Shown here piece after piece: positions 27,317-55,797 of a stretch of DNA of 64,000 nt. The position numbers were made by a program, and so were the translations under genes. Source of the DNA: Pogonophryne albipinna (lineage: Eukaryota; Chordata; Actinopteri; Perciformes; Artedidraconidae); contig CM053244.1 in assembly GCA_028583405.1 (NCBI GenBank), forward strand, positions 620,001 through 684,000, written 5' to 3'. The notes under the pieces are model-generated. The model did no database searches and had not been told where the DNA came from. It was given only the letters and a program-made list of their open reading frames with translations. Positions within the stretch are counted from its first letter, which is position 1. Each line of letters starts with the position of its first letter.

Positions 27317-28808
27317 CTCAAATAAAAAGGGTTAAACAAAGAAAAAAATAAAGGTACTGTCGGTATAACATTCAATCAATCAATCAATGTTTATTTATAT
27401 AGCCCAATATCACAAATGTTACATTTGTCTCAGTGGACTTCACAGTTTGTACAAAATATCAGTATGACAATACGACACCCTCTGTCCTTAGACCCTCACA
27501 TCGTACAAGGAAAAACTTCGGAAGAAAACCCACAGTTTTAAAGGGAAAAATGGGAGAAACCTCAGGGAGAGCAACAGAGGAGGGATCCCTCTCCCAGGAC
27601 GGACAGACGTGCAATAGATGCCGTGTGTAAATTGAAAAGATAATACATTTGCAACATAGGTAGTCCAAATGTTTGGAAATGCATGTGTGTATAATAGGAA
27701 GATGAATCCACGAGGATATCCATCCAGGACCTATGATCCAGGACCACAGCCACGACTCAAGATCCAGGGCTCGCGATGCAGGACACAGGACCGCAGGATC
27801 ATCCATGACTCCGGATCCCAGCGTATATAGACACCAAAAAGAAAGAAATGTGGGGAAGCTGGGTTAATCGGAACATGAGAGTACACAGGTATAGACAGAG
27901 AGAAGGAAGAAGTAAGATGTCCCCCGACAAACTAAGCCTATATCAGCAAAACTAGGGGCTGAATCTAATCAGCCCTAACTATAAGCTTTATCAAAAAGGA
28001 AGGTCTTAAGCGCACTCTTAAAAACGGATAGGGTGTCTGCCGCCAGAACACAAACTGGAAGTTGATTCCACAAATGTGGAGCTTGATAAGAAAAGGCTCT
28101 GGCTCCCATTGTACTTTTAGAGACTCTAGGAACAACCAACAACCCTGCATTATTGGAACGCAATGCCCTAGTAGGACAGTAGGGTATAATGAGTTCTTTA
28201 AGCTAAGATGGCGCCTGCCCATTAAGGGCTTTGTAGGCGAGAAGAAGAATTTTAAATTCTATCCTATGTTCTATAGGGAGCCAGTGTAAGGCCAGCCAGA
28301 ACAGGAGTAATGTGGTCCCTTTTCCTAACTCTGGTTAGTACACGAGCTGCAGCATTTTGAATCAGCTGAAGCGACTTGACTGACTTCTTGGTACACCCTG
28401 ATAATAAAGAGTTACAATAATCCAGCCTTGAAGTAACAAATGCATGGACTAGTTTCTCTGCATCGTTTTGAGGCAAGATATGCCTGATTTTTGCAATGTT
28501 ACGTAGATGGAAGTAGGCGGTCCTTGAAATTGATTTTATGTGGGCGTTAAAGGATAAATCCTGATCAAATATAACACCAAGATTCCTTACAGTCTCACTG
28601 GAGGCCAAATTAATGCCATCCATAGTTAGTATATCTTTAGATAATTTGTTTCGTAGATTCTTCGGGCCAAGTACAATAACTTCAGTTTTGGTCGTGTTTA
28701 ACATCAAAAAGTTTAAGGTCATCCACGTTTTTAAGTTCCTTGAGGCAGTCTTGAATTTTATTTAGATGATTAATTTCATCAGGCTTGATTGATAAATATA
28801 GTTGAGTA

Positions 28809-29678
28809 TCATCCGCATAACAATGAACAGTTTACAGAATGATTCCTTATAATATTGCCTAACGGAAGCATATATAATGTGAACAAAATAGGTCCGAGCA
28901 CTGAGCCCTGTGGCACTCCATGGCTAACTTTGGTTTGCGTGGAAGATTCATCATTGACACGTACAAACTGAGAGCGTTCAGATAGATAGGACCAAAACCA
29001 GCCTAAAGCAGTTCCCTGTATGCCAACTAAGTGCTCTAGTCTTTGCAATAAGATATCATGGTCGATAGTATCAAATGCAGCACTGAGATCGAGCAAAACA
29101 AGAATAGAGACAAGTCCCTTGTCAGAGGCTATTAGAATGTCATTTGTGACTTTAACCAGAGCTGTTTCTGTGCTATGATGTGTTCTAAAGCCAGACTGAA
29201 AATCTTCAAATAAATCATTGTTTTTTAAGTAATCACACAACTGTTTTGCGACTGCTTTCTCAAGAATTTTTGAGAGGAACGGAAGATTAGAAATAGGTCT
29301 ATAGTTGGCTAAAACCTCTGGATCGAGGTTGTGCTTTTTAAGAAGCGGTTTTATCACTGCTACTTTGAATGATTGTGGAACATAGCCTGATAATAAAGAC
29401 ATATTCATAATATTTAATAAAGAAGTGCTAATTAATGGGAAAACTTCCTTCAACAGCTTAGTTGGAATTGGGTCTAACATACACGTTGATGGTTTAGAAG
29501 AGAGAATCATTGAATTTAATTGTTCAAGGTTTATGGCTGAAAAGCATTCTAGTTTACTATCTAGTGTAATATTAGAACTTACGTTTCCGGGAGCTGTTGA
29601 TAACACTATACTGGTCAAAGGCAAGAGGTCATTAATTTTGTTTCTAATAGTAACAATTTTATCGTTAAAAAAGCACAT
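28809..29678 (-). pseudogene. LINE reverse transcriptase, N-terminal part
   Basis: RT blocks are readable: [57 protein letters not shown] (catalytic Asp) and [19 protein letters not shown]. The frame breaks just before the YADD box ([11 protein letters not shown]); in the inserted copy the same place reads [13 protein letters not shown] second frame continues at 28264-28722. A 1-2 base indel, not a large deletion, inactivates it. Confidence 0.85.
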
Positions 29679-30783: not shown

Positions 30784-32790
30784 TCAATCAATCAATGTTT
30801 ATTTATATAGCCCAATATCACAAATGTTACATTTGTCTCAGTGGACTTCACAGTTTGTACAAAATATCAGTATGACAATACGACACCCTCTGTCCTTAGA
30901 CCCTCACATCGTACAAGGAAAAACTTCCGGAGAAAACCCACAGTTTTAAAGGGAAAAATGGGAGAAACCTCAGGGAGAGCAACAGAGGAGGGATCCCCCT
31001 CCCAGGACGGACAGACGTGCAATAGATGCCGTGTGTAAATTGAAAAGATAATACATTTGCAACATAGGTAGTCCAAATGTTTGGAAATGCATGTGTGTAT
31101 AATAGGAAGATGAATCCACGAGGATATCCATCCAGGACCTATGATCCAGGACCACAGCCACGACTCAAGATCCAGGGCTCGCGATGCAGGACACAGGACC
31201 GCAGGATCATCCATGACTCCGGATCCCAGCGTATATAGACACCAAAAAGAAAGAAATGTGGGGAAGCTGGGTTAATCGGAACATGAGAGTACACAGGTAT
31301 AGACAGAGAGAAGGAAGAAGTAAGATGTCCCCCGACAAACTAAGCCTATATCAGCAAAACTAGGGGCTGAATCTAATCAGCCCTAACTATAAGCTTTATC
31401 AAAAAGGAAGGTCTTAAGCGCACTCTTAAAAACGGATAGGGTGTCTGCCGCCAGAACACAAACTGGAAGCTGATTCCACAAATGTGGAGCTTGATAAGAA
31501 AAGGCTCTGGCTCCCATTGTACTTTTAGAGACTCTAGGAACAACCAACAACCCTGCATTATTGGAACGCAATGCCCTAGTAGGACAGTAGGGTATAATGA
31601 GTTCTTTAAGCTAAGATGGCACCTGCCCATTAAGGGCTTTGTAGGCGAGAAGAAGAATTTTAAATTCTATCCTATGTTCTATAGGGAGCCAGTGTAAGCC
31701 AGCCAGAACAGGAGTAATGTGGTCCCTTTTCCTAACTCTGGTTAGTACACGAGCTGCAGCATTTTGAATCAGCTGAAGCGACTTGACTGACTTCTTGGTA
31801 CACCCTGATAATAAAGAGTTACAATAATCCAGCCTTGAAGTAACAAATGCATGGACTAGTTTCTCTGCATCGTTTTGAGGCAAGATATGCCTGATTTTTG
31901 CAATGTTACGTAGATGGAAGTAGGCGGTCCTTGAAATTGATTTTATGTGGGCGTTAAAGGATAAATCCTGATCAAATATAACACCAAGATTCCTTACAGT
32001 CTCACTGGAGGCCAAATTAATGCCATCCATAGTTAGTATATCTTTAGATAATTTGTTTCGTAGATTCTTCGGGCCAAGTACAATAACTTCAGTTTTGGTC
32101 GTGTTTAACATCAAAAAGTTTAAGGTCATCCACGTTTTTAAGTTCTTGAGGCAGTCTTGAATTTTATTTAGATGATTAATTTCATCAGGCTTGATTGATA
32201 AATATAGTTGAGTATCATCCGCATAACAATGAAAATTTACAGAATGATTCCTTATAATATTGCCTAACGGAAGCATATATAATGTGAACAAAATAGGTCC
32301 GAGCACTGAGCCCTGTGGCACTCCATGGCTAACTTTGGTTTGCGTGGAAGATTCATCATTGACACGTACAAACTGAGAGCGTTCAGATAGATAGGACCAA
32401 AACCAGCCTAAAGCAGTTCCCTGTATGCCAACTAAGTGCTCTAGTCTTTGCAATAAGATATCATGATCGATAGTATCAAATGCAGCACTGAGATCGAGCA
32501 AAACAAGAATAGAGACAAGTCCCTTGTCAGAGGCTATTAGAATGTCATTTGTGACTTTAACCAGAGCTGTTTCTGTGCTATGATGTGTTCTAAAGCCAGA
32601 CTGAAAATCTTCAAATAAATCATTGTTTTTTAAGTAATCACACAACTGTTTTGTAATAGATGCCGTGTGTAAATTGAAAAGATAATACATTTGCAACATA
32701 GGTAGTCCAAATGTTTGGAAATGCATGTGTGTATAATAGGAAGGTGAATCCACGAGGATATCCATCCAGGACCTATGATCCATGACCACC
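30777..32790 (-). mobile_element. Second, 5'-truncated LINE copy inserted in the first
   Basis: The 3' end with an (ATTG)n tail is at 30777-30796. It is almost identical to 27374-29235 of the host LINE up to about 32652. It is then abruptly joined to about 133 bp of LINE 3' UTR sequence (32653-32785) in the same orientation. The insertion lies inside the endonuclease codons, where host sequence ending TATAATATTGAT resumes as ATTGATATATGC; the ATTGAT overlap matches the tail repeat. Confidence 0.78.
31611..32649 (-). pseudogene. LINE reverse transcriptase C-terminal half (open frame)
   Basis: The frame is continuous through [49 protein letters not shown], the thumb region and a C-terminal [20 protein letters not shown] segment. 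It lacks the endonuclease and the first RT blocks, so it is dead on arrival by 5' truncation but not otherwise damaged, implying a young insertion. The extra N-terminal residues ([14 protein letters not shown]...) come from the joined 3' UTR segment. Confidence 0.8.
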
Positions 32791-33093
32791 ATCAATATTA
32801 TAATCTGATATTAAATCATTTACCAATATTGCTTTAGATGCTAGAGATCTTATGTTTAAGAGACCACATTTAATCTTCCTGTTTTGTTGCACTGTAGTAG
32901 TTGTTACATTTACTAGGTTATTATGTATGACACCTCTATTAGGTTTTACCTTAAATTGTCCTTGGGCAGACACACACACCGCTAATATTGGGTATTTTAT
33001 TGGGTTCGGGATTCCTATGGATGACTGCCTAGGAGAGAGCGCAGAGAAGCGTGTAAGACTGTGACTCTGCCTCCTGGTCTCAACTCCCATTTG

Positions 33094-33782
33094 TCATGGA
33101 TTAAGTCCACAAAGCCCTGAAATGTTTGCCGAAATGAGATTTGCACCTTCCAAAGTAGGATGAATGCCGTCTCTCTTAATCAGACCAGGTTTTCCCCAGA
33201 AGGCTGTCCAATTATTTACGAAGCCCACATTGTTTGCTGGGCACCACCAAGACAACCAGCGCTGAAATGATGACATGCGGCTATACATGTCATCATTGAT
33301 CAGATTGGGGAGGGGACCAGAGAAGATTACGGTGTCCGACATTGTTTTAGCATAACTACACACCGACTCCACATTAAGTTTGGTGCATTCTGATTGGCGT
33401 AAACGAACATCATTACCACCGACGTGAATAACAATCCTACTGTATTTACGTTTATTTTTAGCCAGCAGTTTAAGATGTGCCTCAACGTCGCCCGCTCTGG
33501 CCCCCGAAATGCATGTGACTGTGGAGGCTTCGGTCTCTAAATTCACGTGTCTCATAATAGAGCTACCAATAACCAGAGTTGGCTTCTCAGCGGGTGTCTC
33601 GCTGAGTGGGGAATATCTGTTAGATAAGTGAACGGGTTGGTGGGGACCTGCGGGTTTCGCGTTATGCCCCTTCTGAACAGTCACCCAGTCTCCCTGCTGC
33701 TCGGGAGTTGCCGGGGGACGGCTAATAGGAGCTACCTTTTGCCGGTCCGCACCGGCTAACATGGGCTTTACTGTAGCTGAGA
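33094..33782 (-). pseudogene. LINE ORF1 with SGNH/GDSL esterase-like domain
   Basis: On the minus strand this reads SATVKPMLAGADRQKVAP, then a Pro-rich linker, then LVIGSSIMRHVN (block I Ser), VIHVGGNDVRLRQSE (GND block) and DGIHPTLEGANLIS (D-x-x-H block). These are the hallmarks of an SGNH hydrolase fold seen in ORF1 of some CR1/L2 LINEs. The N-terminal zinc/coiled-coil part is at 38552-38718, beyond composite copy B. An apparent start MKRYICI near 33801 is created by the end of copy B. Confidence 0.82.
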
Positions 33783-34751
33783 TACAGATGTAGCGCTTCA
33801 TTTCAGACGCCTACCCGTGCGGGTCCGTGATCGGCACGGGGTGGGCCCCTGCTGAAAAGGAAAACCCCCCCGCAGGACTTGAAACGCCCCCTTGATAAAT
33901 AAATGTAATTTTAATGAAACCAGCTGCAATGGATCATGGATCCACCAGGGGGAGCCGTGAAAAGCTGCCACACTGGAACTCATGTCAAATAAACAGCTGA
34001 TAGATCTACAGGTATCTGATATAGCGGATATTTGTTAAGATCCATATGTCACGGATAGGATCATATTCTGTGTAAATAAGAGACATGTAATCATTTACAA
34101 AACATCACCATGTTTTTATTTAACAAAATAATGTTGTTTAATTCACGTAGGTGTAAGTACAAAACCTTCGCTATGTTTTTTCATCAGGAAATGCAGCCCG
34201 GCTCAAACAAACGATTTTCAATCATCATCCTTCCTCACGATCATTTAATGTATCATATGTTCGTGAATTGAAATGAATGCACTAATACATGTAGTTTAAT
34301 CCACGTGAGTTTACAACAACAAAAATAATCGCTTTGTTTTTATATCACATCCGACCGGAGGAAAATGCAGCGCTCTCACTACCGATCATCCTAATCCCAC
34401 GGGCAAACAATAATATGTACAGTGTTAATAGTTTACTGTATTATTAGTGTCTAATATTATGGGTGCGTTACTGCGTTACATTATGTGATGGAACTGAACC
34501 GAATCTCCCTGCGGATGTAGTTTACAGGCGAATACAGCGATGTCCTCTCACAGCACCATGGAAAAGTGAAAGTAACCAGAGAGGAGTGATGATTGGTTAA
34601 CGCGGGGTAACATTTCAAGGTAAGCCAATCAGAGACAGAGTTGGGCGGGTCTTGCCTTATGGGTAAAATACACAGACACACAAACACTTGCTAACACACA
34701 CACACACATACACGGCAACGCTCACCACCAGCACACAAACACACACACACT

Positions 34752-38718: not shown

Positions 38719-39241
38719 GGCTCGCTATCAAGCTAAAATAGCTACCGTTAGCAAACCCGAAAAGAGTGTAGGCAACTGTGGAGTTACAGTCGCTAAGAGA
38801 AGGAGAGTTGTGAGTGCTTAAGCTATAGTAACGTGTGATTACAACGTCAGGCAGTTGCCGTGATCAAGAGTTTTAAAACGATCGATTAAGTTAAGATAAT
38901 AAGCTATCAGCAACAGAACAGGCACACGGGATACCCGGAGATGACAACAACAACCGGAAGTTACAACATGCTTACCGCAATAGTGGTCTGTTGTGTTTTT
39001 TAACCATTTCAAAGTTAATCCAACGTCAACATTTTAGTGGTCTCACCTTCCGAGGTCGAAATTCTCCATTAGCATGACACACCACCATTTTCGCAAAGCT
39101 GGCATGTCAATCTAAAAAAGGAAAGAAATATATTATCACTGTATGTCAGATTAAATGTCATAATGGGATTTTGAGTTTACTTTAAATGACCAGATCAACA
39201 TACAATAGTGAAATCATAGGGTGCATCTAGTATGGTGTAAA

Positions 39242-39729
39242 CAGAGGTCGCGTTAACCGAATATTTTCCGCCTATGACGGATTTTTTTTAACAATGACGG
39301 ACAAATCTGAAAGCAGTCCGTCATTTTGACAGATTAGAACAAACTCGGAACAGCGCCAAAGTTTCCCCGCAGCGAGGCTCCGGTGTTATGCCGTGTTATG
39401 CATGCCCTCCAAAAATGAAATTATACCGTTTCCAAACCTAACTGTGCCGTACAAATCATTGAAATGTCTGTAAGTTTTGGCTTTACGCTGTGCACGCTCC
39501 CGCGAGGTGCAGCAGCCATGCATAACACAGCGCATGTGAACTGTCCCCTCCCGTTGACAGTTCACGAGCATGCTTTCCCCCCCCCCCCCCCGTTGACAGT
39601 TCACGAGCATGCTTCCCCCCCCCCCCCCGTCAGAGTTGTGGGCCGACGGGTAATTCTGGATTTTGACGGAAGTTTTACGATCCTGTCCGTCAAAATGACG
39701 GGCAGCGAAAAAGTCTAGCGCAACCTCTG
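39242..39729. mobile_element. hAT MITE (CAGAGGT[C/T]GCG ends)
   Basis: 488 bp with ends cagaggtcgcgttaacc and complement cagaggttgcgctagac. Exact 8-bp duplications ggtgtaaa lie at 39234-39241 and 39730-39737. It contains two poly-C runs (about 39577 and 39617) flanking a duplicated gttgacagttcacgagcatgc motif. No transposase. Confidence 0.92.
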
Positions 39730-39783
39730 GGTGTAAAGGGCATACTATGAAAGAAAAAGATATCATTTAAAAACAACAGAGAA

Positions 39784-41194
39784 AGGGGAGTAATCCAATT
39801 GTTTTAAAAACCTCTATCGACTCGCACTTGTGTTCAGTATGTCTAGGTGGAGTCCATTCGGCGCTAGGTCCACTGCCTCCGACGAGTATCGGAAGATGCA
39901 GAATGCTCTGAGACAGGGTAGACATGATAACGCCGGTGTTCCTGCAGGTGGGGTCTTTGCGTCCGTGTTAGCACAAGAACCTGTCATAGACCGGACACAT
40001 ATCCGCGCAAGAGGGCCCTGTGACAACCAGGGGGTAATTGGAGCTCTAGGTGCTGGCCTCTCACTGAAAAGTATCTTGGCCAACATCAATCTTGCTCCGT
40101 TCACGACGGATGCAATGACTAATAGCCATCTTGGATTCAACGGTCTATTGGCTGCCTCAGTCATATGTTCCATGAGAACAGTTAGCCCAGATGAAAGGAG
40201 AAAGCTTCTGATATTGGAAACAATGGCTCCTGGAGTCCAGCATGGAGCTATGGCCACTGAGGCCGAGTCGAGAGCTGCTCTGGCGGCTATCCTGGATGAT
40301 GGAATGTCTCTAAGGTATTGCACATGGTGGACTTCCTACATCTTGGCAAACCCTATCGCTACCTACACCCTCGCTACAGGACTCTGGGAGGCGGATCTTG
40401 ACCTTCAGATAAAACTGGACCACCTGTGTGCAGCGGTTAATGCCTCTAAAGATGCATTGGTACCGAGAGTGTGTTACGTCATCGTCCTAACAATAATCGC
40501 GTTTGCCATGAGAGGTGACTTGTCCCAGAAAAGGCTCACATGGATCCAGACAGAATTACGGACTACAATGCCTTTCATAACGGATCTGTCACGTGAGGAT
40601 GTGCAAAAGACCTGGCTGAATTATGGACATCTTGTTGATCACGAGACAATCGCTGCCATATTGGCTGAATGGCAGATCCAGCTCCCAGGAGGTGCTCTTC
40701 GACTTCGAGTCATACTCCAGCAAGCCTCTGGGAGCGGGCTCACCTCCTTGGACATAATCGTGAGGGCTCTCAACGATCATCCTGATTTCCCATGGCCACT
40801 GATTGCTCGTATGAAGCCAGGGGAATGGGAGGCCATGATTACTGCTATCCGGACTGTCGACGGGAGGAGGTTCTACGGATTCAAAGCGGAGTTAGGGGCT
40901 GTTAATGCGACAAACTACAAGTTTGTCACCTGGGTGGCAGGACTGCTACTCATTGCGACCGGAGACGATAGCCTGAAGGACTATCGCGGATTCAAGAAGG
41001 ATGCCGGACGCGAAGCTGAAGTTGCAGGGATCGTCAAAGCATACGCAGACAACTTTGCGGTCGAGGACGACCTTGTCTCCCCCATCAGACCTGAAGAGCA
41101 CGCGAGCATGGTCCATCTCCTGGACCTGGCCAGACGTCATCCCACCACATAAGTGCGGAGAATAATCAAAGCACATTTCTTTAAAAAAAACAAA
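39784..41194 (+). mobile_element. Retrotransposed viral-like mRNA insertion
   Basis: The insertion is bounded by an exact 15-bp direct repeat aaaaacaacagagaa at 39769-39783 and 41195-41209. It begins with about 46 bp of leader, contains a single ORF, and ends with about 40 bp of 3' sequence and an A-rich tract (ttaaaaaaaacaaaa). An A-starting target duplication plus terminal poly-A is the signature of LINE-mediated insertion of a polyadenylated mRNA. It is on the opposite strand from the surrounding candidate exons. Contents: the 440-codon ORF below. Confidence 0.82.
39830..41152 (+). CDS. Endogenous viral element: nucleoprotein-like ORF (negative-strand RNA virus)
   Basis: The ORF is 440 codons, uninterrupted and intronless. 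The start may be Met1 or Met4 (MFSMSRW). It is predominantly helical with no signal peptide or membrane segment. The late region has an aromatic-rich block (NATNYKFVTWVAGLLL) followed by a K-D-Y-R-G-F stretch and a charged C-terminal arm. That order resembles nucleoproteins of non-segmented negative-strand viruses, the single-gene mRNAs that were copied into vertebrate genomes by LINEs (for example bornavirus-like N). I think chuvirus/Jingchuvirales or bornavirus-related N is likeliest, but this is from architecture and recollection, not alignment. In the infecting virus such a protein coats genomic RNA. In the host its intact state suggests either recent arrival or retention. No companion viral genes are present. 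Confidence 0.5.
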   Translation: MFSMSRWSPFGARSTASDEYRKMQNALRQGRHDNAGVPAGGVFASVLAQEPVIDRTHIRARGPCDNQGVIGALGAGLSLKSILANINLAPFTTDAMTNSHLGFNGLLAASVICSMRTVSPDERRKLLILETMAPGVQHGAMATEAESRAALAAILDDGMSLRYCTWWTSYILANPIATYTLATGLWEADLDLQIKLDHLCAAVNASKDALVPRVCYVIVLTIIAFAMRGDLSQKRLTWIQTELRTTMPFITDLSREDVQKTWLNYGHLVDHETIAAILAEWQIQLPGGALRLRVILQQASGSGLTSLDIIVRALNDHPDFPWPLIARMKPGEWEAMITAIRTVDGRRFYGFKAELGAVNATNYKFVTWVAGLLLIATGDDSLKDYRGFKKDAGREAEVAGIVKAYADNFAVEDDLVSPIRPEEHASMVHLLDLARRHPTT

Positions 41195-41521
41195 AAAAAC
41201 AACAGAGAATTAAATCAGACCAATAATGTAGCCTACCATCAACATGAAGATGCCACAGTCATTCCCATACAGTTGCCTGGGGAAACCCTAGCATGTCAGA
41301 AAGCATTTAGTTGTTTTGTTATGGTTCGACATTTATGTTGAATATAAATGATACAAATTGTATACTATTACCTCTATTTCCAAACCAGTCGTCTCTTTCC
41401 ACGGTCCAGGATTTATTGACTGTGAAAGGTTTCTAGAATGAAAAACACAGCTGTATGAAGATCTAAACAGGTAGCTATCAAAATGACCAATATGGTCCTC
41501 TTTCATGCACAACGCACACCA

Positions 41522-41660
41522 TCAGAGGTGGCAAAAGTACACACTCTTTACTTAAGTAGAGGTACAGATAGTTGTGTAAAAAAAAATTGTTGGTAAAAGT
41601 AGAAGTACTGATACAACATTTTACTTAAAAAAGTACAGGCTTTGTAATCACACTACAATG
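41522..41660. mobile_element. Fragment of CAGAGGTGG-type MITE
   Basis: Starts cagaggtggcaaaagtac and has tacttaagtaga and acttaaaaaagtac motifs shared with the 5761-6304 element. The far end and target duplication are not clear. It overlaps the 3' end of the zinc-finger exon. Confidence 0.45.
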
Positions 41661-41968
41661 TAACTTTAAATGCCTCTTTTTCGTGGTTTGTGTGTATGGT
41701 GCATGATGTGCACACCAAGGGCTCGCCACTTTTGCAATCAAGCCGGGAGTGGGGGACACTGTTGTTGTTGGAAGCAGGAGAGAGAGCACAGCTGATGTGT
41801 TGGGTTGCGGTGAGGAAGAATATTCAGAAGCTGATGTGGATGGCAACTTGTGGCAAGCCTCCAGGTGTACCTCCATATCTCCTCTTCTTAAAATTGTTTT
41901 TGCACATTGAGGGCAATGGAAGTGAGCCAAGTCTCTGCAGGTTAAATGGCACTTGTAGATTGCCATAC
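41640..41968 (-). pseudogene. Zinc-finger gene exon (CHLTC...HFHCPQC)
   Basis: After the acceptor tctcttag this minus-strand exon reads GMAIYKCHLTCRDLAHFHC, then PQCAKTILRRGDMEVHLEAC: a Cys/His-rich finger with C2H2-like spacing. A Ser/Thr/Pro-rich linker follows, then a third finger-like stretch (WCAHHAPYTQTTKKRHLKL). It is in phase with the exon at 42057-42222. I recall the paired pattern 'HCP.C / HFHC..C..TI..R' from uncharacterised multi-copy fish proteins, but cannot name a function. The 3' limit is unclear because a MITE fragment begins there. A further small candidate exon lies at 41372-41432 (reading SINPGPWKETTGLEIE). Confidence 0.5.
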
Positions 41969-42056
41969 CTAAGAGAAAGTCAAGAAAAATAAGTTTGCCA
42001 ATGACAGACAAGAACAAAAACAAGCACAAACATGTATCAGTATATGTGTGTGTTAC

Positions 42057-42222
42057 CTTTAAACATTATGCAATTTTTTAAGTGCACTTCCAAGTGCTTC
42101 TCGAGTCAGGATGGTGCGCAGGGTTTCAATTTGGGGCTCAAAGGACAGTGGAACAGTTTGCAACATGTTGTGCAGCGTTTCACTGCAGGCTTTGCAGAGC
42201 CACAGAGGATTGAAAGAGGCAT
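42057..42222 (-). pseudogene. Zinc-finger gene exon with in-frame stop
   Basis: It lies between the acceptor gttttttgtag and the donor AAAG/gtaaca. In the frame that splices correctly into the next exon it reads KRCTTCCKLFHCPL, then PKLKPCAPS, a TGA, then LEKHLEVHLKNCIMFK. The TGA is one transition from CGA (Arg), which would give a normal finger helix. Another frame is open throughout (FNPLWLCKACSETLHN) but ends in a stop at the splice site and fits less well. The gene is therefore probably a recent pseudogene, or the stop is an allele or sequencing error. Confidence 0.5.
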
Positions 42223-42759
42223 CTACAAAAAACAGGAACAAATGTTACAAAATGTATGGTTATAGACTAAAACTTCAATTAAAACAATACTTCATACGGC
42301 CAGTCTTTGCACGCTGTTTAAGTGTGAAAACAGCTTATTTCACTATACATTACATTCTACAACTAACGGCCAGAAACGATAGAAACACTTGTATGATCTC
42401 TTCTTTTAAAAGACATCAGTGTCATTGCCAACAACAACAAATGCAGACCTACCCTTGCTAACCTCTTTACACAAACGTTTAATAAAGCCGAACTGACAAA
42501 CACTTAGCTAACAACGTAAAAAGACTATATAAATATATATTTTTCACATTACACAATTGCCTCTGCATTAGATTATTATTGGTCTTAGTAATAACGTAAT
42601 TAATAACTAGCTGTGAAAGCAGAAAGCTATGAAAAAGAATTGCAAGCAGACATTCAAGTGTACAACTATTGCACACTTTATTAAAGAAATTAGTTCAGTA
42701 ACAAAAACACATGCTTGTACATCGGCATGTATGTAGACACGGAAATACTGTATGTGGAT

Positions 42760-43579
<820 letters not shown>

Positions 43580-46633: not shown

Positions 46634-48535
46634 TCAATGTGATTTCTGACACTCCTTCTGCCGCACAAGTGATTTGAAGTCGGGCTCTGCGCTGGAAACG
46701 GCGATCCGAAGGGCCTCTGTTGTGTGCTGCAGACTCAATCTGTTTCGGTTGCGACATTTTATTTTTGAGAGCGCAGAGAATGCTGCTTCACACCGGTATG
46801 TGGACGGAAACATTGAGATGATGCGTCTTGCCAGTCTGGAGATATTTGGTAGATGCCCCACCAGTTTCCAAAAGTCCACGACATCTGTAATCCGAAACTG
46901 ACGCTGAAGTTCATCTGAGCTCTTTAACTCCACAAACTCCATTTGAAGCTGCACAAGTCCGAGCTGGTCGCTTATTTGCTTCATTTCATTGACCTCAATC
47001 AGGAATGGGTTTTTCACAAGTAGAAAAATATTGCTGTGGTCCTTGAAGTCGTGGAATCTTGATGTGTAGTTTTGCTTGAGCTCAGTTAGCACGTCACAGA
47101 ATTGTGATTGACAGGGCAGGAGAGCGTCTGCATGCATCGCCATCATTTTCTGCACGGTGGGGAAGAAACGGTAATCAGAACCACGGACACTTTGTTCGAG
47201 TACATCCAGTTTGTCAGAAAATACTCTGACAGCCGTGTAGAGCTCATACACGGTCTTGTTTCTTCCCTGCATCTTGATATTAAGTTCGTTCAAGTGCTGC
47301 GTAATGTCACACAGGAACGCAACAGACAGCACCCACTCTTTATCATCCAAAAAGGAAAATCGGGAAGTCTCCCCTTTGCCGACAATGAAGGATTTCAGGG
47401 GTTCAAGCAGGTCCATGAAATGTGCAAGCATACGTCCTTTAGACAGCCATCTGATCTCGGTGTGTAACACCAAATCTCCATAGTGAGTGTCAAACTCCTC
47501 ACACAGCAGTTTAAAATTTAAGTGGTTTCTTGCACGGGCCCTGATATAATTAACCACTTCGATTACATTTGCCATCACTTCATTCAGACATTTGAACTTA
47601 GCAAACAAGGCTTGTTGATGCACAATACAATGGTATGAGAAAATACCCTCAGCAGCAACCCCGCCGTTTTTCAGCGTTTCTTTCAGCAAAGCCACGGCTC
47701 CGTTCCTCTTACCAAGCATCGCCGGTGCGCCATCTGTTGTGAATGCTGTGATTTTTTCTGGTCCAATATTAAACTTTTCTAATGTTTCCAGCACAGCGTT
47801 TTTTATTTCAATGCCCGTTGTTCCATTTTCCAGTGAAACCATGTCAAGCAGTTCTTCTGTAATGTCAAACTTACTGTTGATCGCTCGGATAAAGATGAGT
47901 AATTGTGGCGTGTCATTGATATCCAAGCTTTCGTCCATTGCAAGGCTGACAAACTCAGCGGATGACAGTTTGTCCTTAAGAGTATGTGCAATGTTCTCTG
48001 AAATGTCTGATGCCCTCCTAGCTACAGTAGAATCCGACAGTTGAATTTTTTTTGCCTCTCGTTCCAGGTCTTTTTTCTCAGGAAACAACGTTGAACAAGC
48101 TAGCAGTATGCAATCCTTCACCATTTCTCCATCAGTATATGGCTTCATCTTTTTCATCAGTTCATGTGTGATTTTGTAGGATGCCTCTGTCGCTCTTTCA
48201 CTCGTATTAGTGTGGAATAAGTTTTTTTGAGCAGTTCGGTTCTGTTTGAGTCTCGCCAGCTTTTCCGCCCTCAGCTCTCCACCTTTCGGAAAGTCGGTAC
48301 TGAACTTCGGGTGTTTTGTGTCGTGATGGCGCTGCAAATTGGACCTTTTAAATTGTGAAATGACGTTGTCACAAAGCAGGCAGATGCATTTTCCCGAACC
48401 GGTGGAGACGAAGAAAAACTCGAGTTCCCAGTCCTCTTTAAATGTTCGATATTCCTCTTCATATTTTCGTTTCCTATATTCCTTTGCCATTTTTGCATAG
48501 TGCTGTAAGCTAGTTTTCCCAGTGTGACGGAGCAA
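46634..48535 (-). CDS. hAT transposase, intact (633 aa)
   Basis: Cut-and-paste transposase of the hAT superfamily, acting in the nucleus on the terminal repeats of its own element. The N-terminus has a BED-like zinc finger (C52, C55, H70, H75 in CLLCDN...RSNLQRHHDTKH). The RNase-H-like core shows acidic residues D201 (LAMDESLDI), D268 (TTDGAPAML) and E583 within the C-terminal hATC dimerisation block (STYRCEAAFSALSKIK). CHxxH-type residues are in YHCIVHQQAL, and RW in EIRWLSKGRML. The second Met (residue 17, MAKEYRKRKYEEEY) may be the true start. Length is typical. It resembles the GTF2IRD2/ZBED5/SCAND3-type branch of host genes derived from hAT. No stops or frameshifts, so it may be active or recently so. 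Confidence 0.92.
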   Translation of the reverse strand: MLRHTGKTSLQHYAKMAKEYRKRKYEEEYRTFKEDWELEFFFVSTGSGKCICLLCDNVISQFKRSNLQRHHDTKHPKFSTDFPKGGELRAEKLARLKQNRTAQKNLFHTNTSERATEASYKITHELMKKMKPYTDGEMVKDCILLACSTLFPEKKDLEREAKKIQLSDSTVARRASDISENIAHTLKDKLSSAEFVSLAMDESLDINDTPQLLIFIRAINSKFDITEELLDMVSLENGTTGIEIKNAVLETLEKFNIGPEKITAFTTDGAPAMLGKRNGAVALLKETLKNGGVAAEGIFSYHCIVHQQALFAKFKCLNEVMANVIEVVNYIRARARNHLNFKLLCEEFDTHYGDLVLHTEIRWLSKGRMLAHFMDLLEPLKSFIVGKGETSRFSFLDDKEWVLSVAFLCDITQHLNELNIKMQGRNKTVYELYTAVRVFSDKLDVLEQSVRGSDYRFFPTVQKMMAMHADALLPCQSQFCDVLTELKQNYTSRFHDFKDHSNIFLLVKNPFLIEVNEMKQISDQLGLVQLQMEFVELKSSDELQRQFRITDVVDFWKLVGHLPNISRLARRIISMFPSTYRCEAAFSALSKIKCRNRNRLSLQHTTEALRIAVSSAEPDFKSLVRQKECQKSH

Positions 48536-52978: not shown

Positions 52979-54025
52979 TTATCCACATAAACAGGTACCA
53001 ATAGCTTCCGATTGACTAGCATCCAACCGAGCTTTAAAAACATTTAGTGGCACCAGATTGTTCAGTTTCCATTTAATTTGCAGACTGTTCCAAGACAGAG
53101 GAGCTGCGCATCTAAAAGCTGTCTTCCCTAAGACAGTCCTAGCAGTTGGCACATAAACCACAGCATTCGATCTCAGGCAGTAGCCACTTACAATTCGCCG
53201 TGAGATCAGGAAGCAGATGTAGGATGGAAGTTTCCCTAACATGGCTTTGTATATAAAAATGTACCAGTGACTGAGCCTCCGTACAGTTAGTGAAAGCAAA
53301 CCAGCCCTTGCATACAGGGTACAGTGATGGATTAATGCTTTACAGTTAGTCACAAATCTTAGTGCACTGTGATAGGCGGCATCTAACTTGACCAGGCAAT
53401 TGGCAGGTGCATTCATATACATCAAATCACCATAGTCCAGCACAGGTAAAAAGGTCACAGTGACTAGCCTTTTCCTGGCCTCAAGTGAGAAACAGGACTT
53501 CTTCCTGTAGAAGAAACCTAGCCTAACCCTCAGCTTTTTAAGCAGGTTATTGACATGAAGTTTAAAAGTGAGACAATCATCAAGCCAGATACCAAGGTAT
53601 TTGTAACAGGTAACCACTTCAAGTGTTATTCCTTGCGTAGTTACAATATCTACAACAGGCTCTGGTGTCTTTTTAGCTTTAGAAAAGAGCATTACCTTGG
53701 TTTTCTCAACATTTAAAAGAAGCTTTAGTTCAGAGAGCTGAGTCTGAATAATGTTAAAAACAGCCTGTAATTTAACACCAACCTCCTTAATGGAGGGACC
53801 TGCACAGTACATAACGGTATCGTCCGCATAAAAATGTAAAGTAGCTTCATCCACATTTTCACCTAAACTGTTGATGTAGATGGAGAATAAAAGTGGACCT
53901 AAAACAGAACCTTGAGGAACACCATTAGCAATGTTCAACCACTCAGAAGACAGCCCATCAAAATGAACACATTGGGACCTTTCAGAGAGGTAGTTTACAA
54001 ACCACCCCACTGCATGGCTGGACAT
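52979..54025 (-). pseudogene. LINE reverse transcriptase, C-terminal part
   Basis: Reads [50 protein letters not shown] (catalytic YADD), YKYLGIWLDD, and a C-terminal helical domain ending PLNVFKARLDASQSEAIGT. The preceding RT blocks are in the other frame (54049-55797); the join is at a shift between DLSK and the following AFDTVDHH-type sequence near 54030-54090. Confidence 0.87.
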
Positions 54026-54048
54026 GCCTATACTGGCTAGCCTCTGCT

Positions 54049-55797
54049 TTAAAATGTGATGATCGACGGTGTCAAACGCTTTGAAAGGTCAATAAATAGA
54101 GCTGCACAACTCTGCTTATTATCTAAAATACTCGCCACATCATTCACCACTTTCATTGTGGCAGTGATGGTGCTATGTTGCTTTCTGAAGCCTGACTGAT
54201 GTTTAGACAGGATGTCATTTGTACATAAAAACACCTTTACCTGTTCACTCACTAAGCGTTCAAGAACCTTAGCCAGAACTGACAACTTAGAGATTGGCCT
54301 ATAGTTATTTAATAAGGTGACCTCCCCACCCTTTAGTAGAGGCAGGACATATGCTGACTTCCACAATTTTGGAATTGTGTTTGAGCTGAGGTTAAAAAGA
54401 GTAGTGAGAGGTGGAGCAATAAAATCTGCAGCTATCTTTAAAAAGAAAGGTTCTACGTTGTCCGGGCCAGCCGGTTTCTTAGGAGCTAACTTGGTTAAAG
54501 CTTCACGAACAACATCAACAGTAAAAGGAGTAAAACTAAAAGGGTTTTCCAACACACGTTTTTCAGAGTCACATACTGTAGTGTTCACAGAAGCAGAGTT
54601 AGTGACAGAATCAAATAGAGAACCACAGGACACAAAATGCTCATTAAAGCAATTTAGCATAGTAGCCCTGTCCGATATAGAGCCAGATGCTGTGGTAATG
54701 CACGGAGGTAGCTCATTACGGATATCGCCGGTGGATAACGATTTAATGGCTTTCCAAAATGTTCCAGGATTATTCAGATTCTTTGTGGTTACTGACAGAT
54801 AGTACTTTGATTTAGCACTTTTGATATTAGAAGTGAAGCTATTTCTTAGCTGCCTAAAACGCAGCCATTCTACCTCTGAGCCTGATTGCCTAGCCTTTGC
54901 CCAGGCCTTGTTTCTCTCATGAAGGAGACTGGACAGATTAGCAGAAAACCAAGGATTGTCTCGTCCCTTTACTCTAAATTTACGCAGGGGTGCATGTCTA
55001 TCTATGATCTCCATAAAACCAAGATAAAAATAAGACCATGCGGTTTCTACATCAGCACACAGATCGATTTTACCCCAATCAAAATCAAACAGATCATGCA
55101 CAAAACCCTGCTCCACAAAATGTTTTTTGTCTCTCTTAATGATAATGCGAGGTTTAACCTTTTGGACCTTAGTGTCCCTAATTGTGGCTACAACACAGTG
55201 ATCACTCAGATCATTTGCAAATACTCCCACAGATGAATATTTATGGGGAACATTAGTTAAAATGAGATCAATTAGGGAGGATTTATTAGGGGACTTAATG
55301 TTAGGGCGAGTAGGACTGTCAACAATCTGAGTAACATTTAAAGAGATACAAAGGTTTTTAAAATCCTCTGACACTGCAGTTAACCAGTCCCAGTTAAAAC
55401 CTCCAAGTAGCACTATTTCCTTGTAGTCTAGTTGTGATAAAAGATTTGCTAGTGAAGACAAGGAGTCTTTGACAGCTGAGGGGGGTCTGTAACAACTCAC
55501 TACCATGACCTGTTGACCCTTTGCCACTTCTATATTTATGGCTAAAAATTCAAATTGCTTACTGATCGATTTGGAAACTAATGTGGTTACACTGAACTTA
55601 TTCTTAACATAAATGGCAACGCCACCACCTTTATTAGGCCGGTCGGTACGATACACATTAAAACCATTTAAGGCAATGTCAGAGGCCAACATAGATTTGT
55701 TTAGCCATGTTTCTGATAAAACAATGACGTCAGCGTCAGTCGAGCTCGCCCAGATATGGACAAAATCTAGTTTACCTAACAGACTGCGCACATTCAA
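54049..55797 (-). pseudogene. LINE endonuclease and RT N-terminus
   Basis: APE-type endonuclease: LNVRSLLGKLDFVHIW, VIVLSETWLNKS (catalytic Glu), YRPPSAV, and SDHCVVATIRD (catalytic His). A linker follows, then RT blocks with NNYRPISKLSVLAKVLERLV and KHQSGFRKQHSTITATMKVV. One usual endonuclease motif residue is changed: LLGGFNWDW stands where families have GDFN, so Asp is replaced by Gly. It ends with a frameshift (DLSKRLTPS). Confidence 0.87.

What the first reader, a model, noticed from the sequence alone, without database searches (positions are those of the whole stretch)
39769..41209. Intact nucleoprotein-like viral ORF captured by LINE retrotransposition
Seen: a 440-codon uninterrupted ORF (39830-41152) with short leader and trailer, ending in an A-rich tract, flanked by a perfect 15-bp direct repeat aaaaacaacagagaa. 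Established: non-retroviral RNA virus mRNAs, notably bornavirus N, enter vertebrate genomes as LINE-copied cDNAs with poly-A and target duplications. Inferred: the source is a negative-strand RNA virus N gene (chuvirus/Jingchuvirales or bornavirus-related). Full openness beside heavily decayed repeats suggests recent insertion or retention for host use.
Basis: partly seen in the sequence, partly recalled or inferred. Interest (0 to 1): 0.88.

Follow-up and report, generated by a model that had tools for sequence, protein, structure and literature searches.

The report
Young intact chuvirus nucleoprotein gene fossil
An unbroken gene whose closest named relatives are nucleoproteins of chuviruses (RNA viruses) sits in an animal genome, likely a fish, where it was likely pasted in recently by the enzymes of a LINE jumping gene; empty versions of the landing site survive elsewhere in the same genome, and nothing found here shows that the host uses the gene.

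Summary
A 437-codon ORF (39839-41152) lies in a 1,411-bp insert (39784-41194) with an A-rich tail and a perfect 15-bp duplication. The landing site is a dispersed host repeat: in 5 of 7 fetched sister copies the 15-mer stands once, after TT, without the insert, which is direct evidence of insertion at a TT|AAAA target, as L1-type retrotransposition leaves. No Pfam family reaches its cut-off. Foldseek, on a poor model, puts the nucleoprotein of Wenling fish chuvirus-like virus first (37% identity, 453 columns); a homologue's best match is a Piscichuvirus protein. So the source is likely a chuvirus N mRNA, not a bornavirus. The host copy has 1.2% private substitutions, an upper bound for the insert's age; about 0.5 stops would be expected without selection, so youth suffices to explain the open frame. 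Small deletions in the flank leave some room for constraint. The genome also holds five decayed N copies, likely from a different chuvirus, multiplied as passengers. Chuvirus N fossils in teleosts are known (PMC11521997, PMC11089739); this is a clean new member.

The parts
39784..41194 (+). the whole insert: likely retrotransposed copy of a chuvirus-like N mRNA (1,411 bp)
   Evidence: absent from the sister copies of the landing site; 5 of 7 keep the 15-mer once; the insert itself found no match in three of those copies
39839..41152 (+). 437-codon open reading frame, chuvirus-like nucleoprotein (N)
   Evidence: homologues P0001 and P0002; Foldseek best match Wenling fish chuvirus-like virus nucleoprotein
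39784..39838 (+). 55-nt leader of the copied mRNA
   Evidence: sequence between the duplication and the ATG
41153..41182 (+). 30-nt trailer
41183..41194 (+). A-rich tail (A8 C A3), continuing into the A-rich start of the duplication
39769..39783 (+). target-site duplication, left copy, preceded by TT
41195..41209 (+). target-site duplication, right copy
38991..39241 (.). host dispersed repeat, left part, about 98% identical to sister copies
39730..39768 (.). host dispersed repeat, middle part up to the landing site
41210..42761 (.). host dispersed repeat, right part (extent from the copy L030)

Best explanation
The insert carries an unbroken 437-codon gene whose closest named relatives are chuvirus nucleoproteins, and it was likely made when the endonuclease and reverse transcriptase of a LINE (likely L1 clade) copied a viral N mRNA into a germline chromosome at a TT|AAAA site. 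Shown: the open frame, the A-rich tail, the perfect 15-bp duplication, the empty landing site in sister copies of the host repeat, L1-type ORF1 genes in the same genome, and protein relatives. Inferred: that the template was a polyadenylated N mRNA made during infection of a germ cell, that an L1 and not another poly-A LINE did it, and that the host is a fish. The frame is most simply open because the insert is young (no older than the 1.2% private divergence of its host repeat copy); selection is not needed for the lack of stops.
For: ORF, tail and duplication. Empty site: the right flank matches 8 further places in the genome; 7 were fetched; in 5 of these 7 the 15-mer stands once, preceded by TT, without the insert, and the other two (L032, L035) have deletions there. 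L1 ORF1 family PF02994: 13 places over the cut-off (150 of 227 candidates scored), 8 of 13 in open frames of 268-363 codons. Identity: P0001 (E 2.9e-61) and P0002 (E 4.8e-60) are the only homologues found among the 7,998 candidates scored. Foldseek against BFVD: first row Wenling fish chuvirus-like virus nucleoprotein, 37% identity, 453 columns, E 6.2e-15; of 18 rows with E up to 0.001, 12 bear the name nucleoprotein or nucleocapsid, 3 are uncharacterised or hypothetical and 3 unnamed. Homologue P0002: the single row under 0.001 is Sanxia atyid shrimp virus 4, genus Piscichuvirus, Chuviridae. Age: 17 private substitutions in 1,454 columns; 3.28% of random substitutions make a stop, so 0.50 stops expected, P(none) 0.60. 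G+C 52.3% against 39.0%.
Against: Both structure models are poor (mean pLDDT 42.7 and 36.0), TM-scores are low, and the solved-structure fold search gave nothing under 0.001; the family call rests on the sequence part of those matches. One of the 18 rows is a qinvirus (row 14; lineage), outside Jingchuvirales. The best-matching virus is itself only 'unclassified Riboviria' in the taxonomy. The A tail is short and interrupted by a C. Viral gene-start and gene-end signals were not checked. The window's repeat copy carries four private deletions of 7 to 15 bases and a 1-base insertion in the aligned flank, so an insert as old as that copy should probably have met a frameshift; that points to a still younger insert or to some constraint, and cannot be decided here.
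Confidence: 0.92

Rival explanations
1. The gene is kept by the host: a young endogenous N, possibly interfering with chuvirus infection, as reported for some bornavirus N fossils.
For: Fully open frame with no stop or frameshift, while the flanking host repeat copy took four private deletions and a 1-base insertion. PMC11521997 (passage) cites a squirrel bornavirus-like N that inhibits the virus.
Against: At the upper-bound divergence only about 0.5 stops are expected, so no stop is the likely outcome without selection. No expression data were available; the insert lies inside a dispersed repeat, and no promoter was tested.
Confidence: 0.1
2. The source is a bornavirus, nyamivirus or other non-chuvirus N gene.
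For: The capture mode is well documented for bornaviruses (PMC4865735, PMC10288550, passages); one qinvirus stands among the 18 best rows and some other viral N proteins lower down.
Against: The best match is a fish chuvirus-like N at 37% identity over 453 columns; no protein named as bornavirus or nyamivirus in the 50 rows shown of 139; the homologue P0002 matches a Piscichuvirus.
Confidence: 0.03
3. An ordinary host or transposon gene that only looks viral, for example a gene of the host repeat.
For: It lies inside a dispersed repeat and near transposon ORFs.
Against: The repeat's sister copies lack it; no Pfam family reaches its cut-off; the composition differs; its named relatives are viral N proteins.
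Confidence: 0.02
4. An assembly artefact: viral RNA/cDNA contamination joined into the contig.
For: The frame is intact and the genome search found one full-length copy only.
Against: A perfect target-site duplication around the insert inside a 47.6-Mb contig, with the empty site known from sister copies, is not what contamination produces.
Confidence: 0.02

Closest known systems
Chuvirus N-like endogenous elements of vertebrates (PMC11521997, PMC11089739; abstract and passages seen)
   Same: Nucleoprotein gene of a chuvirus fixed in a vertebrate genome; PMC11521997 mentions frames over 400 codons with similarity to chuvirus N/L, and several elements in one species.
   Different: Here the insert is complete with its duplication, tail and paralogous empty sites, and is bounded in age by its host repeat; PMC11521997 dates by orthology (11.9-35 million years, three pairs shown). 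Whether this locus is in their lists could not be checked.
Endogenous bornavirus-like elements (PMC4865735, PMC10288550; passages seen)
   Same: Viral mRNA copied by LINE-1, with poly-A and target-site duplication; some with intact frames.
   Different: A different virus group by the matches; the duplication here is longer (15 bp) than the 6-9 bp ones in the passages seen, and still perfect.
Nucleoprotein of Wenling fish chuvirus-like virus (BFVD A0A2P1GMT6, 447 aa)
   Same: Best match of the window protein, 37% identity over 453 columns, similar length.
   Different: From a virus record, not a genome; the taxonomy lists it as unclassified Riboviria.
Decayed N copies of the same genome (C668, C6)
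   Same: Homologous protein, 45.6% identity over 270 aa to one open piece.
   Different: Broken, multiplied within a larger repeat, likely derived from a different virus lineage.

Membership tests
Chuviridae/Jingchuvirales nucleoprotein | Sequence relationship to chuvirus N proteins | tested here: met
   Foldseek first row: fish chuvirus-like N, 37% over 453 columns, E 6.2e-15; homologue P0002 best matches a Piscichuvirus protein
Chuviridae/Jingchuvirales nucleoprotein | N fold (two helical lobes binding RNA; recalled) | tested here: inconclusive
   Mostly helical model but mean pLDDT 42.7; PDB fold search none under 0.001
Chuviridae/Jingchuvirales nucleoprotein | Place in a curated N phylogeny next to Piscichuvirus | not testable with these tools
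LINE(L1)-mediated non-retroviral viral insertion | Target-site duplication | tested here: met
   Perfect 15 bp
LINE(L1)-mediated non-retroviral viral insertion | Poly-A at the 3' end | tested here: met
   A8 C A3 running into the A-rich duplication; short
LINE(L1)-mediated non-retroviral viral insertion | Endonuclease target TT|AAAA in the empty site | tested here: met
   TT before AAAAACAACAGAGAA in 5 of 7 sister copies; the consensus itself is recalled
LINE(L1)-mediated non-retroviral viral insertion | L1 machinery in the genome | tested here: met
   PF02994 over the cut-off at 13 places, 8 of them in open frames of 268-363 codons; activity itself not tested
Bornaviridae N | Similarity to bornavirus N | tested here: not met
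   No Pfam family over its cut-off; none named in the 50 rows shown of 139
Domesticated (host-used) viral gene | Purifying selection across species | not testable with these tools
   No relatives of this genome are held (note)
Domesticated (host-used) viral gene | Frame kept open longer than expected by chance | tested here: inconclusive
   0.50 stops expected at the upper-bound age, P(none) 0.60, which gives no sign of selection; the flank's private deletions and insertion would predict a frameshift if the insert were as old as the repeat copy

The most novel reading that the evidence does not exclude
A very young, possibly still polymorphic, full-length chuvirus N gene that is expressed from a new locus and acts as an endogenous brake on chuvirus infection, in a host lineage that has captured chuvirus N genes at least twice from different viruses.
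Probability: 0.12. Interest if true: 0.75.

Novelty: new member of a known kind. Interest (0 to 1): 0.42.

Why it matters
The locus gives a clean before-and-after picture of how an RNA virus gene enters an animal chromosome: viral message, A-rich tail, duplication, and the empty target known from sister copies of the same repeat. It would extend the mechanism well described for bornaviruses to a chuvirus, and its youth makes it a good place to test whether a fresh viral N gene is expressed or kept. The five older copies suggest that chuviruses reached this lineage's germ line at least twice.

Tried and rejected
Pfam, PHROGs, solved-structure sequences, phage records and IMG/VR contigs gave no convincing relative (Pfam's only row for the window protein, DUF2087, lies under its cut-off, and the solved-structure rows have E above 1). 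A second protein search with an alignment found the same two homologues. A search for a viral polymerase (PF00946) in the genome found none, but the controls did not ring either, so it says nothing. The idea that the older N copies form a third gene of a gypsy-like element was considered, because an integrase zinc-binding fragment lies upstream on the same strand; it was set aside because a neighbouring stretch of the unit (L010 1260-2200) has 68 matches in the genome, a lower bound, while the N stretch matches only in the five copies on C668 and C6, so N looks like a passenger. Dating in years rests on a recalled rate only. Expression, orthology and population frequency could not be tested.

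Full report
What is there. It sits in a 1,411-bp insert, 39784-41194, with a 55-nt leader, a 30-nt trailer and an A-rich tail (A8 C A3). A perfect 15-bp repeat flanks it, 39769-39783 and 41195-41209, and is found nowhere else in the window.

The landing site. The right flank is part of a dispersed host repeat: a search of the whole 1.07-Gb genome with 41195-41520 gave the window itself and 8 further places; 7 of these were fetched, the weakest (82% identity) was left out. The repeat covers at least 38991-39241, 39730-39783 and 41210 to about 42761 of the window; stretches of 225 bases or more within it are 88.7-98.4% identical to the sister copies, shorter ones near the landing site lower. Aligned with the window's joined flanks, 5 of the 7 copies (L029, L030, L031, L033, L034) read through the landing site with the 15-mer present once, preceded by TT, and no insert; L032 lacks part of it and L035 has a deletion there. 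The insert itself found no match in three of these copies, L022-L024. This shows an insertion with target duplication at TT|AAAA, the site preference of L1 endonuclease (recalled). The genome holds L1-type ORF1 genes over the family cut-off at 13 places, 8 of them in open frames of 268-363 codons.

What the gene is. No Pfam family reaches its cut-off and no solved structure is related by sequence. Among 7,998 candidates scored, out of a database of about 5.8 billion proteins, two unnamed homologues appear, P0001 (310 aa) and P0002 (697 aa, 37% identity over 392 columns). AlphaFold with these three sequences is poor (mean pLDDT 42.7), so the fold itself is not evidence. But the Foldseek comparison with predicted viral proteins, which also scores sequence, puts the nucleoprotein of Wenling fish chuvirus-like virus first, with 37% identity over 453 columns and E 6.2e-15; of the 18 rows with E up to 0.001, 12 are called nucleoprotein or nucleocapsid, 3 are uncharacterised or hypothetical and 3 unnamed. 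Lineages were looked up for three of these rows: Wenzhou crab virus 2 (row 3) is Chuviridae, the qin-related virus (row 14) is Qinviridae, and the first-row virus is filed only as unclassified Riboviria. The homologue P0002, also modelled poorly (mean pLDDT 36.0), has one match under 0.001: a protein of Sanxia atyid shrimp virus 4, genus Piscichuvirus, family Chuviridae. Both routes lead to chuviruses of aquatic animals. No protein named as bornavirus or nyamivirus stands in the 50 rows shown of 139.

How old and why open. Over 1,454 comparable columns the window's repeat copy has 17 private substitutions (1.2%) against six sister copies (L035 left out), with pairwise distances from the window of 0.021-0.037. 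The insert entered after this copy existed, so its own neutral divergence is at most about that. In this frame 3.28% of random substitutions make a stop, so about 0.5 stops are expected and none with probability 0.60 (0.22 at 3.5%). At recalled fish mutation rates of a few 1e-9 per site and year the upper bound is a few million years. Youth alone therefore explains the lack of stops. Against a wholly neutral reading at that upper bound, the flank copy has four private deletions (7 to 15 bases) and a 1-base insertion, so an insert as old as the repeat copy should probably have met a frameshift; the simplest reading is that the insert is younger still, and constraint is not excluded.

Older captures. 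The same genome holds 12 further protein matches, which resolve into five copies, three on contig C668 and two on C6. They are broken by stops and frameshifts, with an in-frame TGA at the same place in 4 of the 5 (the fifth alignment starts beyond it), and are 94-99% identical in DNA to each other in the long stretches. A 401-base N stretch matches only there, while a neighbouring stretch of the repeated unit has 68 matches in the genome, many at lower identity; the unit also bears an integrase zinc-binding fragment. So the broken N was likely multiplied as a passenger. One open piece is 45.6% identical to the window protein and 44.4% to P0001, which suggests a different virus and a separate, older capture.

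What is known. [quoted passage not shown] PMC11089739 (passages) reports chuvirus-like elements in ray-finned fish. LINE-1 capture with poly-A and duplications is described for bornavirus mRNAs in PMC4865735 and PMC10288550 (passages). One library search for chuvirus together with target site duplication and LINE gave a single paper, on another retroelement (search listing only), so an explicit target-duplication or empty-site account for a chuvirus N was not found in that search; absence from the literature at large is not claimed. The finding is a clean new member of a known kind.

Noticed in passing
window 39242-39729: A small DNA transposon with inverted ends CAGAGGT...ACCTCTG and an 8-bp duplication GGTGTAAA (39234-39241, 39730-39737), hAT-like by duplication length (recalled); it is absent from the 7 sister copies of the host repeat aligned.
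   Followed up: yes
L002-L008, contigs C668 (about 261.8, 356.1 and 583.2 kb) and C6 (about 6.451 and 6.515 Mb): Five decayed chuvirus-like N copies, likely from a different virus, carried within a larger repeated unit holding an integrase zinc-binding fragment.
   Followed up: partly
window 39730-39768, beside the landing site: The window copy lacks about 14 bases next to the left duplication that 5 of 7 sister copies have; whether this was lost at insertion or at another time is open.
   Followed up: partly
window 46634-48535, minus strand: A 633-codon open frame with Spin-doc-type zinc finger and hAT dimerisation domain: an apparently complete hAT-like transposase gene.
   Followed up: no
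window 52979-55797, minus strand: Endonuclease and reverse transcriptase frames of a non-LTR retrotransposon, interrupted.
   Followed up: no
window 28264-29678 and 31611-32795, minus strand: Two reverse transcriptase stretches that share long identical protein sequence: two copies of one non-LTR element close together.
   Followed up: no
window 33094-33801, minus strand: A 235-codon frame with a GDSL-lipase-like domain, upstream of reverse transcriptase stretches on the same strand.
   Followed up: no
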